Source of the DNA: Brucella cytisi | Lineage (GTDB): Bacteria; Pseudomonadota; Alphaproteobacteria; Rhizobiales; Rhizobiaceae | NCBI GenBank assembly: GCA_012103075.1 | Contig: JAAVLQ010000001.1 | Coordinates: 1,550,001 to 1,614,000, forward strand | Reading direction: 5' to 3' | Length of the DNA: 64,000 bases | Part shown: in pieces, positions 5,167 to 45,768 of the stretch | Layout of the letters: every line of letters starts with the position of its first letter | How positions within the stretch are numbered: the first letter of the stretch is position 1 | The notes under the pieces: generated by a model | What the model was told of the DNA's origin: nothing | Database searches by the model: none | The model's input: the letters and a program-made list of their open reading frames with translations, nothing else | Position numbers and translations under genes: made by a program

Positions 5167-5340
5167 TTTTCCCTCAACCCGCCGAACCGAAGAACGATAC
5201 CGGCTTTTTCCTCGCACCGCAGGTTGAAGTGATCGTGGCACTGAAGGCCCTTCTTCCCGACGGCAACATTTCAACAATGTCACCGCCACGGACAGCCGCG
5301 CACGGACACACCCCGTATCCATGCATGGGTGACCGGATAC

Positions 5341-5512
5341 GGCAGGTCTCCTGACTTCCGGGTCTTCGCTTCCCCTCCGCCTTCCCGATCGCACCTAATG
5401 CTTTCAGTGGCTTTTACCGCTCACACGGCTGTGGAGGATAGCTCTCCGGTTACAGTTGCGGGGGCAGTCCCGGCATCAACCAGAATGGCTTCACCGTGTT
5501 CCCTTTTCATCC
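5341..5512 (-). promoter_or_regulatory. Cobalamin (adenosylcobalamin) riboswitch upstream of btuB
   Basis: Read on the minus strand, the conserved blocks appear in the family's order: GGGAACACGGTGAA, GACTGCCCCCGCAACTGTAA with CGG, GCCACTG (5404-5410), GGGAAGG, and finally GAAGTCAGGAGACCTGCC (5341-5358). The GCCACTG and CCCCCGCAACTGTAA boxes are the B12 box and its partner. The element ends about 175 bases before the btuB start, leaving room for an expression platform that would sequester the btuB ribosome site or terminate transcription. High cobalamin is therefore expected to repress btuBFCD. Confidence 0.95.
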
Positions 5513-5655
5513 GCCTGAACAGCGGAACCGTTTCCTGAGAATTGCGATAGCAACATGGTTAAGGATTCGCAACTCCGCTGAAGCACAATCCGGCACAGAA
5601 AACTGAATCACATTCGCAAGGAATGGATTCAACCTCCCGATTTCAAAAGAATTTT

Positions 5656-6768: not shown

Positions 6769-9551
6769 TTAGCTTGCCTGTTTCTTGAGAAGAACGATAG
6801 CGAGCGCCATGAGAACCGGCACCGCGATCAACAACGGCAAAAACGAACCTGCCAGATCGGCAAAACCCAGTGCCTTGGAGAAAACCCCGCGAGAAATGGT
6901 CACAAAATAAGTCGCGGGATAGATTTTACCGATGAACGCGCCCGCACCTTGCAGCGACGATACGGGGTCAATGATACCGGAATATTGCACAGCCGGAATG
7001 AGTGTCAGAAGTGCCGTTCCGAAGATCGCTGCAATCTGGCTGTTCATGAAGGTGGACAGCACCAACCCCATGCCGGTCGCAATTGTGACATAGAGCAGCG
7101 CCGCCAGCGCATAAGTCGGAAAACTCCCCTGTGAACGGCACCCGGAAAATAAACACCGCAAACGCTGTCAGCATCAGGAAATTCAAAAATGCCAGCCCGA
7201 TATAGGGCAACTGCTTGCCGAACAAAAACTCGAATTTCGTCACCGGCGTCACGTAAAAATTGATGATCGACCCCAGTTCCTTTTCCCGAACCACGCTCAA
7301 CACTGCCAGCATCGAAGGGATCATGAGAAGCAGTAGCGGAATCACTGCCGGCACCATAGCTACGAGGCTTTGTACGTCCGGGTTATAACGATAGCGTATC
7401 TCCAGATTGAAACTGCCAACATTCGCCGCGTTGCCATAGAGCTCGCGGGCTTTTTGCGTTAGCCAGTTGGCGTGCATGCCTTGAACATAGCCTTTGATCG
7501 TCTCGGCACGAGTGGGCATCGCTCCGTCAATCCGGGCAGCAACTTCCACCGGGCGGCCGCGCATGACATTTGCGCCGAAATTCGGCGGTATCTCGATAGC
7601 CAGACTGATCTTTCCATCGCGCATTCGCCGGTCCAGATCGTCATAATCGGTTATGGGAACCTGTTCAGAAAAATATCGCGAGCCTGCAATCTGCTGCGTG
7701 TAATCGCGGCTGATCGTCGTATCGTCACGATCAAGCACGGCAAACTTCAGATCCTCGACATCCAGATTAATACCGTAGCCAATAACGAACATCAGGATAA
7801 CGCTACCTAGAATAGCCAGCGTTGCGCGGATCGGATCACGCTTCAGTTCCAAAGCCTCACGTCGTGTGTATGCCAGCATTCGCCGCAGGTCTGGCAACCA
7901 GCCCGAGCCTTCTTTGGGTGTGTTTCGCCTACCTCTCCCATTTGATCTGAATTGGCTACCGGCAATGGCGCTGGCTGTTCTGTCTCGCCAATAGCGTCCT
8001 GCAGATATGCGACGAAGGCTTCCTCCAGAGTTTCAGCATTGCGACTCTTGGTAATCGCCTTCGGCGTATCGCTGATCAGCACCTTGCCCGCATGCATCAG
8101 CGAAATCCGGTCGCAAAGCTCCGCTTCGTTCATGAAATGGGTAGAGACGAAAATCGTCACATTATCCTTGCGCGATAGATCGGCGAGGATTTGCCAGAAA
8201 GCATCACGAGCGACCGGATCCACACCCGATGTAGGCTCATCGAGAATGAGAATATCAGGTGAGTGGATCAAGGCCACAGCCAGTGACAGGCGCTGGCGGA
8301 TACCGAGCGGCAAGCCATCGGGTAAGGAATCCATAACCTCAATGAGATCAAAGCGTTCGGTCAATTCCTTGATACGGCGTTCGGTCAGATCCGGCGCCAT
8401 ATCAAACAATTTGGCGTGGAGTTCCAAATTCTGACGAACAGTCAACTCCGAATAAAGCGAAAACGCTTGCGACATATATCCGACATGGCGGCGTATATCG
8501 ATATCTTTGGGATCGACCTCTCGTCCGAACAGTCGCGCCGTTCCGTCGCTGGCAGGCAACAGCCCGGTCAGAACCTTCATGGTCGTGGTCTTGCCGCAAC
8601 CGTTGGAACCCAGAAAACCAAAGATTTCACCGCGCGGAATTCGAAAACTTACATTATTCACCGCAGTGAAGCTGCCAAAACGAACGGTGACGTGTGCTGC
8701 CTCAATCGCGATTTCAGCATCCGCACCGAAGTCGCGGTGCGGAATTTCTATGTCCTGATGGCCTTTCCGCAATTCCTCCGGCAGGAGCGCAATGAAGGCC
8801 GCATCGAGATTTGGAGTGTTGGTGCGCTGCAGCAATTCCCGCGGTGTACCTGTCGCCAGAATCTGTCCATCATTCATCGCGACCAGCCAGTCGAAACGCT
8901 CGGCTTCTTCCATATAGGCGGTCGCGACAATGACGCTCATTCCGGGACGATCCTTGCGGATATCGTCAATCAGCTCCCAGAACTGGCGTCGGGATAGAGG
9001 GTCGACACCGGTCGTCGGCTCATCGAGTATGAGTAGATCGGGATCATGGATGAGGGAGCAGCAGAGGCTGGTCTTCTGCTTCATGCCGCCCGATAGTTTG
9101 CCAGCCGGACGATCCGCGAAAGCCGACATACCCGTGCGCGCCAGAAGATCGGCAATACGACGCTCGCGCTCTTTTCGATTATGCCCGAACAGCCGTCCGA
9201 AAAAGTCGATATTCTCGAACACCGAAAGCGTGGGATAGAGGTTCTTCCCAAGCCCCCCTGCGGCATATAGGCGATACGGGGGTAGGCAGACTGGAGATGA
9301 CGCTTGTCCGAAATATCACCGCCGAGAACCTCGATGCGTCCCTGTTGCATCGTTCGCGCTCCGGCGACCAACGATAACAGGCTTGATTTCCCGACCCCGT
9401 CAGGTCCGATCAGACCGACCATGCAGCCGACGGGAATATCAACGTTGACGTCGCGCAGAGCACGCGTCTTCCCATAGGACAGCCCTACGCCTTGCGCCCG
9501 GACGACAAAGCTGTCGTCATTGGCGCCAGCTTTAACAGGAACATCGTTCAT
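6769..9551 (-). CDS. RbbA-type fused ABC-ABC-permease efflux protein (three frame breaks)
   Basis: Read through its frame changes this is one protein of about 927 residues, close to the length of E. coli RbbA (YhiH). ATPase domain 1 has Walker [10 protein letters not shown] (about residue 40), signature KLSGGMKQK and Walker [14 protein letters not shown]. ATPase domain 2 has GSNGCGKTT (about residue 325), a degenerate signature [10 protein letters not shown] and [13 protein letters not shown]. The third part is an ABC-2 permease: [16 protein letters not shown], the periplasmic [14 protein letters not shown], then [21 protein letters not shown] and membrane helices. Breaks lie near 9255, 7912 and 7125. 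If the 7912 break were real the permease would be a separate gene. The start overlaps the upstream gene as ATGA. Confidence 0.8.
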
Positions 9552-10616
9552 TTCACAGTTTCCGCAAGATTCTTCGGCCACTCAGCATTAGGATCGAGCT
9601 TGACATAAGCCATGCCCGGCAATCCGGTTTTCACCTGCTGGATATATTTTTGAAGCAGTTCTTGCGGGATTTTAGCCTTCACACGGAACATCAGCTTCTG
9701 GCGCTCTTCCTCCGTTTCTACGGTCTTCGGCGTAAATTGGGCCACATCGGCCACAAAGCTGATCTTTGCAGGAATGACATATTGCGGCGCGGCATCGAGA
9801 ACAATCCGGGCGTCGGCCCCCCATGGCCACCCGCCCGGCTTGCCCCGTCGGCAGGAAGAAAGTCATGTAAACGTCGCTGACGTCTACAAGATTGAGTACC
9901 CTCCCACCTGCGGAAAGCACTTCACCCGGTTGGGCAACGCGGTATTGAACACGTCCCGGCTTCGGTGCTCTCAAAGTGGCGTCGTTGATATCGGCCTCAA
10001 TGCTCGCGATTGCCGCCTTGGCGGCTTCAACCGATGCTTCGGCATCCACGACCTGTGCCTTGGCAGCCCCAATGGCGGCCTCAGTGGCCGCAAGTTGCGC
10101 CTTGGCTGCACCGACAGCCGCCTCCGCACCCTGCGCAGTTGCACGGTCATCGTCCGGGACTTGCTGGGAAACCGTGCGCGATTGCGTCAATTGCTGGGAG
10201 CGGGCCAGACGGCGCTGGGCGGCATCCAGTTGCGCTTCGCGCTGTGCCACCGTCGCTTCTGCAGCCGTGTGTTCGGCTTCGCGCTGCGTGACAAGACTGC
10301 GCGCTGTCTCGATACCGATCTCAGCACGGCGCAATTGCGCCTCAGCTTGCTTGCGCTGGCTTTCCAGCTGATCTGTATCCATACGTGCAAGAATATCATT
10401 TACCTGAACGAAATCCCCTTCATCTGCGAGGATTTCGCGAATGCGTCCCGGGCTCTTCGTCGAAATATCGATTTCAACCGCCTCGATGCGTCCATTGCCC
10501 TTGGCAATACCGTCCGGCAACCCATCGCCATTCAGCGTTTTCCAAGCATAGTACCCGCCTGCGGCAAGGACGATAATCGCTCCAGCCAATATCCATTGCT
10601 TACGGTTGAAAGCCAT
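9548..10616 (-). CDS. HlyD-family membrane fusion protein, YhiI-like (frame break)
   Basis: Periplasmic adaptor of about 355 residues that would link the inner-membrane exporter to an outer-membrane channel. An N-terminal membrane anchor ([19 protein letters not shown]) precedes a biotinyl-lipoyl half ([18 protein letters not shown]), a long Ala/Glu/Gln-rich coiled-coil hairpin (about residues 80-210), and the second lipoyl half [21 protein letters not shown]. The C-terminal barrel follows a frame change in the six-C run at 9819-9824 (GRVAMG to [19 protein letters not shown]). It is the first gene of the operon and couples to rbbA by an ATGA overlap. The upstream gap holds an FNR/FixK-type box. 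Confidence 0.83.
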
Positions 10617-10856
10617 AATGAAACACCCTCATTGCCATCGTCGTCACAACGCCGTCTTCAAACGAAGCACCGGCAAGCAGTCGCCGCCTGCAAGGGTTTT
10701 GATTGTCCCCACCGCCCCGCCTCCGGCATCTGCCAGAACCTTCTCGGGAATGATATGGAACTACCTTTTCATTTAGCAACCGGTGAATTGGGGAAGCGAT
10801 CCAGAATCGCAAACTCCCGGTTAGACCTGCTCTAATCGGAATAAAGGTTGCCCGCC

Positions 10857-10870
10857 TTGATTAGGATCAA
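10857..10870. promoter_or_regulatory. FNR/FixK-type box TTGAT-TAGG-ATCAA
   Basis: This is an exact match to the symmetrical FNR/FixK/Anr consensus TTGAT-N4-ATCAA. Its centre is 42 bases from the first base (10906) of the candidate structured RNA on the plus strand, the class II activation distance, but the -10 there (around TTGCTA, 10895-10900) is poor. It also lies about 240 bases upstream of the efflux operon start on the minus strand, so the regulated direction is undecided. Confidence 0.6.
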
Positions 10871-10905
10871 GAACTGCTAAAATACAGAACAATGTTGCTA
10901 GAGAC

Positions 10906-11100
10906 GCGGGTGCTGATTTTATGAAACAGAGGGGAGTAACGCCGACAGCACCCGCTGGCTGTCGATAGACGACGTTACAGAAAGATCGCGCTCATGCGCT
11001 CGACAGATTGATTTAGCCGGGGTGCCATTCGAGTAGGGCCTCGGCACCCCGGGTCACCGACTCTGGTGGAAACCGGCAACGATTGTTGGTTAGCACCCGC
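10906..11100 (+). ncRNA. Candidate structured RNA with alternative closing helices (possibly yybP-ykoY-like)
   Basis: GCGGGTGCT (10906-10914) is exactly complementary to AGCACCCGC at two places: 10947-10955 and 11092-11100. The two pairings exclude each other, as in a conformational switch. Inside is a strong 10-bp hairpin, CCGGGGTGCC/GGCACCCCGG (about 11018-11053), followed by a smaller GGT...ACC helix. The segments GGGGAGTAAC (10931-10940) and GGGTCACCGACTC (from 11051) recall conserved loops of the yybP-ykoY manganese riboswitch, but the match is from memory and imperfect. No gene follows on the plus strand: the next gene is convergent. It could be an orphan riboswitch, a small RNA, or a leader whose gene was lost. 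Confidence 0.4.
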
Positions 11101-11114
11101 TCAAACGAAGCTCT

Positions 11115-11128
11115 TTGATTTCAATCAA
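11115..11128. promoter_or_regulatory. FNR/FixK-type box TTGAT-TTCA-ATCAA
   Basis: A second exact TTGAT-N4-ATCAA palindrome in the same intergenic region, 258 bases from the first. No convincing -10 lies at the class II distance in either direction. Plus-strand activation would give RNA antisense to the 3' end of the GHL10 gene; minus-strand activation would run through the candidate RNA towards the efflux operon. Confidence 0.5.
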
Positions 11129-11166
11129 ACAAACAACAATTCCGCAAATCGTCGTCGTTTTTGCCG

Positions 11167-12453
11167 TTAGTTTTTCCGGGGCCTGCACTTGCCCCACGTC
11201 TTTTTCAGATAGTTCGACACACCTTTCAGCTTCGGGTCGGAGAGGAAACCCTGACGAAAGAGAATGCTCCCTTTCACCTCTGGCAAAGATTCATTGAATT
11301 CTAGCTGGCGCTTGATTTCGGTCACGCCCTCGCCCGCCTGCCAACTGGGTTCAAGTGTGGTTCCAGAACCGGCCCGATAGAGTGCCAAACCAACATAAAG
11401 ATCGGTCTTCGTGCCGCGAACGGTATCGGCCCACCATTTCGCAATCGTCCCGTAAGACACATCCTTGCGGCCAAAGGACCAGTAAATCTGCGGCGCGATA
11501 TAGTCGATCATGCCTTCTTTCACCCAACGCCGGGTGTCGGCAAAATCTCCGTCATAGTTCGTTTTCCCGGCGCGGGTTGCAGAACCGCGGGGATCGTCCG
11601 CAGCGTTGCGCCAAACGCCACTCGGGCTGATGCCGAAACGGACATTTGGTTTGATGGCTTTTATCTTGTCTGAAATCTCCCGCACCAATGTATGGGTATT
11701 GTAACGTCGCCATTCGTATTTGCTCGAAAAGCGTGTGCCAAACCGTGCATATGATTTGTCGTCGTCGAGTTTCGACGATGCGGTTTCGTAGTAGAAATAA
11801 TCATCGAACTGAATCCCATCGACATCGTATTTCTGGACGACCTCTGCCGTCACATTCGTCACCCATTCACGGACAGCCGGAATGCCGGGATCAAGGACAT
11901 AACGGTCGGCTGAAACACCGACCCAGTCGGGGTGGAACTTGAAAACACTGACTGGCGACTCGTTTGACGAATTCCGCAATTCCTTGCGGGTAGACGGCTT
12001 CGTATCCATCGAAACACGGTAGGGATTAAGCCATGCATGCAGTTCTATGCCGCGCTTATGCGCTTCCTGAATTGCAAATTTCAGCGGATCAAAGCCGGGA
12101 TCTTTACCGAGAGTTCCAGTCAGATAGGACGACCACGGCAAATAGGATGACTGATAAAATGCATCGGCAGTCGGCGAAACCTGAAAGATGACAGCATTGA
12201 TACCATGCTCGGATGCTTCATCGAAAAGTCTGAGCAGCTCTTCTTTCTGACGCTTTATGCGTTCAGCATCGTCCTCGATACGGGACGAACTGCGTGACGG
12301 CCAATCGAGATTGAGAACTGTCGCTATCCAGCTGGCATGAAATGCGTCGCAGTCGAGGGGCATGAAATCGTTCCGTCTAAACAACTCGTCAGGCAAGGGT
12401 TTGAAATGGTTCTTTAACGCATCAGAGCGCCGTACGTCCATTTGGACGCACAA
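11167..12453 (-). CDS. GHL10-family (YngK/DUF187-like) glycoside hydrolase-type protein
   Basis: Uninterrupted protein of up to 428 residues. The TIM-barrel signature of the glycosyl-hydrolase-like 10 family is visible: WIATVLNLDWPS near the start, LLRLFDEASEHGINAVIFQVSPTADAFY, GIELHAWLNPYR, KYDVDGIQFDDYFY, FGISPSGVW and DYIAPQIYWSF. Family members act on cell-surface or peptidoglycan-associated glycans and are usually secreted lipoproteins. Here no signal peptide is seen from the longest start, and no clear ribosome site precedes it, so the true start may be the later ATG of MPLDCDAFHASW or lie beyond an unrecognised break. It is transcribed alone; its end faces the RNA candidate. Confidence 0.78.
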   Translation of the reverse strand: MCVQMDVRRSDALKNHFKPLPDELFRRNDFMPLDCDAFHASWIATVLNLDWPSRSSSRIEDDAERIKRQKEELLRLFDEASEHGINAVIFQVSPTADAFYQSSYLPWSSYLTGTLGKDPGFDPLKFAIQEAHKRGIELHAWLNPYRVSMDTKPSTRKELRNSSNESPVSVFKFHPDWVGVSADRYVLDPGIPAVREWVTNVTAEVVQKYDVDGIQFDDYFYYETASSKLDDDKSYARFGTRFSSKYEWRRYNTHTLVREISDKIKAIKPNVRFGISPSGVWRNAADDPRGSATRAGKTNYDGDFADTRRWVKEGMIDYIAPQIYWSFGRKDVSYGTIAKWWADTVRGTKTDLYVGLALYRAGSGTTLEPSWQAGEGVTEIKRQLEFNESLPEVKGSILFRQGFLSDPKLKGVSNYLKKTWGKCRPRKN

Positions 12454-12561: not shown

Positions 12562-13005
12562 ATGTACAAGAATATTCTCGTAACCACCGATGGGTCAGAA
12601 TTTGCAGAGCGCGGGCTCGTCCACGCATTTAAACTGGCACGAACAGTCGGCGCGAAGGCGACGGTGCTGACTGTCACCGCTCCCTATTCCGTTTCGGGGC
12701 TTCCCGGCGGCTGGACTGATAGCCCTGCCTTCATCGAGCGCTTCGAACAAGAATGGAACGAGTATGCCGATAAATCCCTCGCTCGTGCGCGCGAACTGGC
12801 GGCTGAAACGGAAGTCGAAGTTCACACGCTGCATGTGGTTGCGCCACATCCGGCGACATCAATCATCGAAACTTCTAAAGAACTGCGCAACGATCTTATC
12901 GTCATGGCTTCCCATGGTCGTCGCGGACTGAAAGGTATGCTTCTTGGCAGTCAAACCTACGAAGTCCTGACACGCAGCAACACACCGGTTCTAGTGGTAA
13001 AATAA
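12562..13005 (+). CDS. Universal stress protein, UspA family
   Basis: A single Usp domain of 147 residues, full length. It starts with the typical MYKNILVTTDGSEFAERGL strand-helix and ends with the ATP-binding motif ASHGRRGLKGMLLGSQT (family pattern G-x2-G-x9-G-S/T) plus the final strand TPVLVVK. The ATG follows an AGCGAGGGCAGC ribosome site. It lies between the GHL10 gene (divergent) and a convergent flavin-barrel gene, with its own terminator. Usp proteins with the ATP motif act in stasis or oxygen-limitation responses. The upstream gap holds an inverted repeat (12495-12514). Confidence 0.9.
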   Translation: MYKNILVTTDGSEFAERGLVHAFKLARTVGAKATVLTVTAPYSVSGLPGGWTDSPAFIERFEQEWNEYADKSLARARELAAETEVEVHTLHVVAPHPATSIIETSKELRNDLIVMASHGRRGLKGMLLGSQTYEVLTRSNTPVLVVK

Positions 13006-29527: not shown

Positions 29528-29571
29528 TGTTCTCTTCCCGTCGTCTGCATTTCATTTCTGATTTGGATAAT

Positions 29572-29592
29572 AAAAAGGCCCCGAGGGAGCCT
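29572..29592 (-). terminator. Attenuator terminator in the ilvB leader
   Basis: On the minus strand, GGCTCC-CTC-GGGGCC followed by TTTTTATT. It stands between the leader peptide and ilvB and is the natural off-state hairpin of a classical amino-acid attenuator. Confidence 0.8.
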
Positions 29593-29624
29593 GTCTTTCG
29601 CACATGGGAGCTTTCGCCGGATGG

Positions 29625-29678
29625 TTACACCATCCTGCCCATGCGCGCCCGTACCACAAGAATAATAATCGTGTTCAT
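29625..29678 (-). CDS. ilvB leader peptide (branched-chain attenuator)
   Basis: A 17-residue open frame, MNTIIILVVRARMGRMV, with six consecutive Ile-Ile-Ile-Leu-Val-Val codons. It sits about 100 bases before ilvB and upstream of a terminator hairpin. Ribosome stalling at these codons when charged tRNA is scarce would favour an antiterminator and let ilvB/ilvN be transcribed. The mechanism is established for enterobacterial ilv operons and for alphaproteobacterial amino-acid operons; here it is inferred from sequence. Confidence 0.85.
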   Translation of the reverse strand: MNTIIILVVRARMGRMV

Positions 29679-29840
29679 GGTGGCGGACACTAATAGCCGG
29701 ATTTGGCGTCGTCAACGCATAAATACATCGCCCGCGATATTTTCTTAGGCTCACCCGCCCCAAACGATAACTTTATTTCAACGGAAGATTCTTATCCTGA
29801 CGCGAAACCTCCTGTTGAAAGTTGGGGCGGAGTGGGCAGC

Positions 29841-42142: not shown

Positions 42143-42364
42143 ATATCCACTCTCCTTCGAATGGGGTATCAGCACCCCGTTTCAGCCACGGAATCCGGCT
42201 ATATAAGAATTTACTTGCCGACCCCGATATGTTGCGAGGATTGACCAGCAAATGCAGGCTGTCAATGAAAAATGAACACAAGGGCTGGTTGTCGGGAGCC
42301 TATTGGCAAAACCCGTTAAAAACTACGCACCCTCTTCCAATCATGATCAACCGCGCTTATATAC

Positions 42365-42705
42365 GGCGTGTCGGCGCAAGCTGACTATGGTGATAAACGG
42401 ACGGTGTAATAAACCCATTGGACCCGGGGGCGGTACCCGGCGCCTCCACCAGAGTACAAATCTGCCTATCGGTTTGTATTGTGGCGGGGGCGAAACAGGA
42501 TCGACAAGGGTGTAAAGATCGCTCTTTTACTCGGCATGATACCACCGTTATCGGGTCAATTGAGTAGTTGCAAATGACAACAAAGCTCAGGGTTATGCTC
42601 TCGCTGCCTAATGGCGGTGCGGGAAACCCACTCTAAAGTCCTTAGGGTTAGCCCCTTAAGGCGGGGTTCGGAGGCACGGCAACAGAAGCCTCCACTTTCC
42701 CTTTC
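42365..42705 (+). ncRNA. ssrA: Permuted (two-piece) tmRNA gene
   Basis: Ribosome-rescue RNA in the circularly permuted layout of alphaproteobacteria. The acceptor piece comes first and ends in CGCCTCC-A-CCA (42441-42451). A 34-base spacer (42452-42485) is removed. The coding piece then begins GGGGGCG (42486-42492), pairing with CGCCTCC as the acceptor stem; GAAACAGGATCGACAAGG follows. The tag frame is at 42570-42611: GCA resume codon, peptide ANDNKAQGYALAA, stop TAA. The ALAA end is the ClpXP/ClpAP degron. The 5' and 3' outer ends are approximate; GGAGGC/GCCTCC near 42670-42700 is a likely final hairpin. SspB, which recognises tagged proteins, is encoded 2.3 kb away. Confidence 0.93.
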
Positions 42706-45725: not shown

Positions 45726-45768
45726 TTGATCGTGATCAATGGTGAAAAGCAAACAGGCGCTTTATACT
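45726..45768 (+). promoter_or_regulatory. FNR/FixK-type class II promoter
   Basis: TTGAT-CGTG-ATCAA (45726-45739) is an exact box. A good -10, TATACT (45763-45768), begins 30.5 bases from the box centre, so transcription would start near 45774, giving the textbook -41.5 position. The next start codon on this strand is the small membrane protein at 45804. Confidence 0.75.

What the first reader, a model, noticed from the sequence alone, without database searches (positions are those of the whole stretch)
10906..11100. Possible RNA switch with two mutually exclusive closing helices
GCGGGTGCT at the 5' end can pair perfectly with AGCACCCGC at 10947-10955 or with an identical copy at 11092-11100. 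Between them is a 10-bp hairpin. The segments GGGGAGTAAC and GGGTCACCGACTC recall the yybP-ykoY manganese aptamer. The first base lies at the class II distance from an FNR box. No downstream gene exists on that strand, so this could be a free-standing regulatory RNA or a riboswitch whose gene has been lost. This is my best candidate for something undescribed.
Basis: partly seen in the sequence, partly recalled or inferred. Interest (0 to 1): 0.72.

Follow-up and report, generated by a model that had tools for sequence, protein, structure and literature searches.

The report
Low-oxygen-controlled folded RNA, opposite strand

Summary
The conserved thing is an RNA of about 176 nt on the MINUS strand (predicted 11080 to 10905). 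It occurs in 32 of 35 same-genus genomes; no credible copy was found outside the genus. All 32 have TTGAT-N4-ATCAA at -41.5/-42.5 and an extended -10 TGNTA: a class II FNR/FnrN/FixK-type promoter. Structure is supported by covariation (99.3% of cells paired; 82 double-changed cells against 26.8 in shuffles; 24 double changes on a tree of the neighbouring gene, 3 of them in P4). Wobble pairs favour the minus strand 121 to 3. Its competitor is an internal hairpin (P4, pseudoknot-capable), not the distal copy, which is promoter DNA and exact in only 10 of 31 relatives. No Rfam family matches credibly, yybP-ykoY included. Most likely a free-standing, anaerobically induced regulatory RNA, working like FnrS but unrelated in sequence. 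Transcription, targets and switching are inferred.

The parts
11115..11128 (-). FNR/FnrN/FixK-type box (anaerobox) TTGAT-N4-ATCAA, centred at -41.5 from the predicted start
   Evidence: Present in 32 of 32 homologous loci; half-sites invariant, central 4 bases in 6 forms
11091..11095 (-). Extended -10 element TGCTA (TGNTA)
10905..11080 (-). The structured RNA, about 176 nt; predicted start 11080 (G), end at or just after 10905
   Evidence: Conserved block in 32 of 35 same-genus genomes, covarying structure, minus strand by wobble asymmetry. Ends are predicted, not measured
11053..11080 (-). Hairpin P1 with invariant loop CCACCAG (11063-11069)
   Evidence: 3 of 7 pairs with double changes, the other 4 vary on one side
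11017..11052 (-).
   Evidence: 5 of 10 pairs with double changes, 5 invariant
10985..11008 (-). P3, GCGC hairpin with flanking AUC/GAU pairs
   Evidence: All 7 pairs invariant in 31 of 31, so no covariation test possible
10936..10978 (-). P4, long hairpin (9-bp outer and 5-bp inner stem), loop GCGGGU able to form a 6-bp pseudoknot with 10906-10911
   Evidence: 4 of 9 outer pairs with double changes, resting on 3 double changes on the tree plus stepwise G-U changes; pseudoknot pairs invariant
10959..11006 (-). Alternative helix S1a: 11000-11006 with 10959-10965, excludes inner P4
   Evidence: 217 of 217 cells paired but only one pair varies
10906..10955 (-).
   Evidence: 310 of 310 cells paired, one pair varies U-G/U-A; T-enriched tail in many relatives
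10929..10933 (-). CCCUC, unpaired in both states, resembling an anti-Shine-Dalgarno
   Evidence: Invariant in 31 of 31; role inferred
11167..12453 (-). Upstream neighbour: GHL10 glycosyl-hydrolase-like gene
   Evidence: PF02638; an ORF of the same cluster lies upstream of the RNA in 32 of 32 loci
10857..10870 (-). Second FNR-type box, assigned to the downstream HlyD operon, not to the RNA
   Evidence: A TTGA-N6-TCAA box lies there in 22 of 32 loci, all of them with HlyD downstream; variable spacing

Best explanation
A free-standing structured regulatory RNA of about 176 nt is transcribed on the minus strand from a class II FNR-type promoter (box 11115-11128, extended -10 TGCTA 11091-11095, start about 11080). 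Shown by sequence comparison: conserved promoter layout, conserved and covarying RNA structure, strand, independence of the identity of the downstream gene. Inferred: FnrN/FixK switches it on when oxygen falls, and it then acts in trans by pairing through exposed invariant segments (CCACCAG in the P1 loop, CCCUC in the 3' linker, which resembles an anti-Shine-Dalgarno) with mRNAs. Its 3' half can fold as P4 plus a loop-to-tail pseudoknot, or as S1a plus S1b, where S1b is a terminator-like 3' stem. In the energy model P4 and S1a are about equally stable before the last bases are made, and S1b takes over afterwards.
For: Conserved in 32 of 35 same-genus genomes; of the 22 shorter alignments 20 start at the same base, 10905. 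Box, TGNTA and start G at -41.5 (12) or -42.5 (20) in 32 of 32 (L008 read by eye because the script's pattern caught an earlier G). TTGAT-N4-ATCAA occurs at 22 sites in the genome against 2 for the reversed control, and pieces of an FnrN-like gene are there (Cys cluster seen in the ORF; HTH piece 90.8 bits to FnrL, below that model's whole-protein cut-off as a fragment must be). Covariation: 99.3% of 1345 cells paired; 82 cells with double changes (shuffles 26.8, reached by 0 of 500) and 12 pairs (shuffles 8.3, reached by 2 of 500); at most 3 pairs and 17 cells when slid. On a tree of the GHL10 region: 24 double changes (11 in P1, 10 in P2, 3 in outer P4), 64 single kept, 8 broken, 1 restored. 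Strand: 121 G-U against 3 A-C cells; alifold -105.8 against -96.4 for the other strand's own best fold. Autonomy: downstream gene is HlyD-type in 25 and TonB-receptor-type in 7 of 32 (one of each checked). In G025 and G032 the GHL10 gene is followed directly by a cobalamin riboswitch with neither RNA nor box. No conserved reading frame. Two states: positions paired only in S1 are invariant in 12 of 13, against 25 of 75 paired in neither; truncated RNA: S1a lower than P4 by 0.24 kcal/mol on average, P4 the more probable in 25 of 31; full length: S1b mean probability 0.985.
Against: No transcript was seen; no expression data were available. S1a, S1b, P3 and the pseudoknot hardly vary, so covariation cannot prove them, and outer P4 rests on 3 double-change events. 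In the full-length model P4 has a mean probability near 0.001, though the pseudoknot is not modelled. The folds used sequences with about 8 bases before the predicted start. The U-run after S1b is weak in the window's own clade (TCTCT) and the terminator scan listed none there (loop limit 8). No target was tested. The helices for the strand test were chosen as minus-strand helices, which favours minus; the promoter evidence is independent of that. Fitch counts depend on arbitrary choices at ties.
Confidence: 0.7

Rival explanations
1. Cis-acting leader (attenuator or riboswitch) of the HlyD/ABC efflux operon: the FNR-driven RNA reads through into HlyD unless S1b terminates it, and P4 acts as anti-terminator.
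For: An HlyD-type gene is the next one on the same strand in 25 of 32 loci; P4 and S1 exclude each other and are nearly balanced before S1b completes; T-enriched tail after S1b, 0.44 against 0.33 in the next 60 bases.
Against: 7 of 32 loci have another gene downstream, and in the 4 of these 7 that were scanned a cobalamin riboswitch lies between; distance to HlyD runs from 103 to 314 nt; in 22 of 25 HlyD loci another FNR-type box lies between RNA and gene.
Confidence: 0.15
2. Plus-strand RNA with two closing helices.
For: Copies are exact in the window and the single-sequence plus fold is good (z -3.43).
Against: Distal copy exact in only 10 of 31 relatives; wobble asymmetry 121 to 3 for minus; the FNR box on that side is at variable distance and not found in 10 of 32.
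Confidence: 0.03
3. mRNA for a small protein.
For: Some relatives have open frames across parts of the RNA.
Against: Starts, stops and lengths of the frames differ between relatives; the longest ATG frame that starts in the RNA ranges from none (L012) or 4 codons to 115; changes follow base pairs.
Confidence: 0.04
4. A bistable RNA that senses a ligand or protein at low oxygen and whose P4/pseudoknot and S1 states have different activities in trans.
For: State-specific invariance and near-equal energies before completion.
Against: S1 helices hardly vary; no ligand pocket was identified; the full-length model strongly prefers S1b, though without pseudoknot energy.
Confidence: 0.15

Closest known systems
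FnrS, the FNR-activated anaerobic sRNA of E. coli (PMC8139620, passages seen)
   Same: Regulatory RNA behind an FNR-type promoter; FnrS represses more than 30 mRNAs dispensable without oxygen; a like role here is only inferred.
   Different: No Rfam relationship found; this RNA is longer and has two alternative 3' folds. FnrS length and structure are recalled only.
Anaerobox (FnrN/FixK) promoters of rhizobia (PMC7888657, passages seen)
   Same: FnrN and FixK both bind the anaerobox and activate at low oxygen; the site here fits the consensus as I recall it (the letters were not in the passages seen).
   Different: Here it would drive an RNA, not fixNOQP or fnrN.
yybP-ykoY manganese riboswitch (RF00080)
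   Different: No match up to E=10; the look-alikes are on the other strand.
Rfam Rhizobiales and Brucella sRNAs (Atu_C8, BASRCI and others)
   Same: Intergenic Rhizobiales sRNAs; Atu_C8 lies elsewhere in this window.
   Different: None matches this RNA; the one Brucella sRNA hit, BASRCI408, is a 16.8-bit match (cut-off 398) elsewhere in L013.

Membership tests
FNR-activated regulatory RNA (works like FnrS) | FNR-type box at class II position with a -10 element | tested here: met
   32 of 32 loci, -41.5 or -42.5
FNR-activated regulatory RNA (works like FnrS) | FNR-family regulator present in the genome | tested here: met
   FnrN-like pieces at L185 with FNR-type HTH and N-terminal Cys cluster, in two frames in this assembly; whether the protein is intact was not settled
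FNR-activated regulatory RNA (works like FnrS) | Induction without oxygen, lost without the regulator | not testable with these tools
   No expression data
FNR-activated regulatory RNA (works like FnrS) | Base-pairing repression of target mRNAs | not tested
   Only the invariant unpaired CCACCAG and CCCUC segments were seen
FnrS RNA family itself | Covariance-model match in Rfam | tested here: not met
   No FnrS match at gathering score, at E up to 10 or up to 5 in 9 relatives
yybP-ykoY riboswitch RF00080 | Covariance-model match | tested here: not met
   None up to E=10, both strands
yybP-ykoY riboswitch RF00080 | Upstream of a regulated gene on the same strand | tested here: inconclusive
   The look-alike motifs are on the plus strand; the next plausible plus-strand gene is a Usp gene at 12562-13005, behind the minus-strand GHL10 gene
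Conserved structured RNA | Covariation beyond controls | tested here: met
   strongly for P1 and P2, less strongly for outer P4
RNA switch (two exclusive conserved states) | Covariation exclusive to each state | tested here: inconclusive
   P4 outer stem covaries (3 double changes on the tree); S1a and S1b are complete but nearly invariant

The most novel reading that the evidence does not exclude
A genus-wide RNA switch made only at low oxygen: its 3' half chooses, while being transcribed, between a pseudoknotted hairpin (P4) and a terminator-like arrangement (S1a/S1b), so that oxygen sets its synthesis and a second signal sets its shape and activity.
Probability: 0.18. Interest if true: 0.8.

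Novelty: new member of a known kind. Interest (0 to 1): 0.56.

Why it matters
FNR-controlled RNAs are known in E. coli (PMC8139620, passages). In this group, relatives of the brucellosis agents, a review of Brucella sRNAs had no occurrence of words beginning anaerob, oxygen or FNR (PMC9751625, word search only). A conserved RNA tied to an anaerobox, with a folded model ready for searching, would make oxygen-dependent riboregulation in these bacteria directly testable, and its two exclusive folds make it a candidate for a second input.

Tried and rejected
Rejected: plus-strand RNA; distal closing helix; yybP-ykoY; small ORF; plasmid or phage origin (no match in 72,556 plasmid and 50,697 phage records); a repeat element (one match in the genome). 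Rfam at E up to 10 gave two matches near the locus, both far below their cut-offs and taken as chance: PyrR204 (16 bits of 71, E 2.9, overlapping P2) and c-di-AMP (11.5 of 38, E 9.1).

Weak model hits outside the genus: 40 of the 47 genomes with E up to 1 and 53 of the 54. I looked at 10 of these loci; 9 of the 10 were scanned for the relaxed box TTGA-N6-TCAA and none has one (L064 was not scanned), and the 5 alignments shown cover parts or poorly matched stretches, so I treat them as chance; the rest were not looked at one by one, and a diverged copy is not excluded. The searches used stricter filters. Of 82 stretches of the pattern scan 80 had ids and were re-scored: 23 score 138-210 bits, all titled Brucella, Ochrobactrum, Falsochrobactrum, or Rhizobiales/Hyphomicrobiales bacterium; the others score 25.4 or less, mostly on the short pattern itself. 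The three same-genus genomes without the RNA stayed without it: no match with the model at E up to 1, and with filters off at the GHL10 locus nothing better than 9.4 bits, E 0.025. A viral-contig scan with the GHL10 gene gave nothing. Target prediction was not attempted.

Literature: seven searches; several lists were cut at 12 or 20 rows, and no listed title or abstract start describes this RNA. Passages were seen of PMC4845025, PMC4365724, PMC9751625, PMC3927594, PMC7888657 and PMC8139620. Supplementary sRNA tables could not be opened, so an entry there is not excluded.

My notes give the box as 11117-11130, and one search gives 20 of 32 for the second box; the correct values are 11115-11128 and 22 of 32.

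Full report
What is there. The 10617-11166 interval lies between a HlyD-type gene and a GHL10 glycosyl-hydrolase-like gene, both on the minus strand. A DNA search of 120 genomes found it in 32, all of the same genus (32 of 35, the own genome included). Ten alignments cover nearly the whole interval; of the other 22, 20 start at one base, 10905. Such a sharp edge is what a gene for an RNA gives.

Strand. In an alignment of 31 of the 32 (one whose RNA looked the same as another was dropped), helices read on the minus strand depart from Watson-Crick pairs by G-U in 121 cells and by A-C in 3 (P1, P2, P3, P4, pseudoknot). The helices were chosen on that strand, which helps it; but the consensus fold is also better on minus, -105.8, than on plus, -96.4, each with its own best fold. 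Single-sequence folding alone would not have told: z -3.43 for plus, -2.88 for minus.

Promoter. Reading on the minus strand, TTGAT-N4-ATCAA stands at 11115-11128; its half-sites are the same in 32 of 32 while the middle takes six forms. TGNTA follows in 32 of 32, and the first G of hairpin P1 stands 41.5 (12 loci) or 42.5 (20 loci) bases from the box centre (in L008 the script's pattern caught an earlier G, and the position was read by eye). This is the layout of a class II FNR-dependent promoter with an extended -10 (recalled knowledge). That FnrN and FixK act through the anaerobox at low oxygen is stated in PMC7888657 (passages seen). The genome has 22 such sites against 2 for the reversed pattern, and an FnrN-like gene, seen as two open pieces in different frames.

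Structure. In one search, 99.3% of 1345 cells pair. 12 pairs have changes on both sides (8.3 in shuffles, reached by 2 of 500) and 82 cells do (26.8, reached by none); slid structures reach at most 3 pairs and 17 cells. On a tree built from the neighbouring GHL10 region, 24 double changes keep pairing (11 in P1, 10 in P2, 3 in outer P4), 64 single changes keep it, 8 break it and 1 restores it (ties resolved arbitrarily). P1 and P2 are thus very well supported and outer P4 moderately. The P4 loop GCGGGU can pair with the 3' tail ACCCGC, with a two-base connecting loop and no spacer, a good pseudoknot geometry by established rules (recalled). These exclude P4. S1a and S1b are intact in all 31 sequences but one pair in each is all that varies. 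Positions paired only in S1 are invariant in 12 of 13 (the other is A or G opposite U), against 25 of 75 positions paired in neither state (Fisher 8e-5, not corrected for kinship). Before the 3' arm exists, S1a is lower than P4 by 0.24 kcal/mol on average and P4 has the higher mean pair probability in 25 of 31; with the arm, S1b has mean probability 0.985 and P4 about 0.001 (pseudoknots not modelled, about 8 bases before the predicted start included). Fifteen bases after S1b are T-richer (0.44) than the next 60 (0.33), with clear T-runs in some relatives and a weak one in the window's clade; the terminator scan lists none there.

Autonomy. A GHL10-type ORF is upstream in 32 of 32. Downstream lies an HlyD-type gene in 25 and a TonB-receptor-type gene in 7 (by similarity clusters; one member of each checked with Pfam). 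Of the 7, the 4 that were scanned have a cobalamin riboswitch between. In G025 and G032 the GHL10 gene is followed directly by that riboswitch, with no RNA and no box; G027 also lacks the RNA. A box like that at 10857-10870 is found in 22 of 32, all with HlyD, at variable distance, so I assign it to HlyD.

Reach. The model R1 was run on 394 family and 397 order genomes (drawn evenly, overlapping sets, stricter filters). Strong matches, 177 bits or more, occur in 7 genomes, all of the genus; the next best is 21.8 bits. The eighth same-genus genome listed in that draw, G032, has none. No Rfam family matches credibly.

Interpretation. Shown by comparison: a conserved structured RNA, its strand, and a conserved FNR-type promoter layout. 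Inferred: transcription, oxygen control, trans action through CCACCAG and CCCUC, and a fold switch. The closest known kind by function is FnrS (PMC8139620, passages seen); it is not a member of that family by covariance model. The leader rival for the HlyD operon stays open at about 0.15.

Noticed in passing
window 10857-10870 (-): Second FNR-type box ahead of the HlyD/ABC efflux operon; a like box is found in 22 of 25 loci with HlyD downstream: the operon itself may be oxygen-controlled.
   Followed up: partly
window 9548-10616 and 7843-9581: HlyD and the ABC ATPase gene are each split over two frames here, while HlyD is one 355-aa frame in L003. The assembly is rated 85.8% complete, so sequencing indels are likely.
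   Followed up: partly
L185 1008-1755 (G000:C1 near 733,600): FnrN-like regulator seen as two open pieces in different frames; a TTGAT-N4-ATCAA site lies just beyond it at C1:733899.
   Followed up: partly
window 5324-5547 (-), 29560-29679 (-), 42331-42696 (+): Cobalamin riboswitch, Atu_C8 sRNA and alphaproteobacterial tmRNA.
   Followed up: no
window 45726-45739: A third TTGAT-N4-ATCAA site in the window.
   Followed up: no
L180, L182: Empty site: the GHL10 gene is followed directly by a cobalamin riboswitch, RNA and FNR box both missing.
   Followed up: yes
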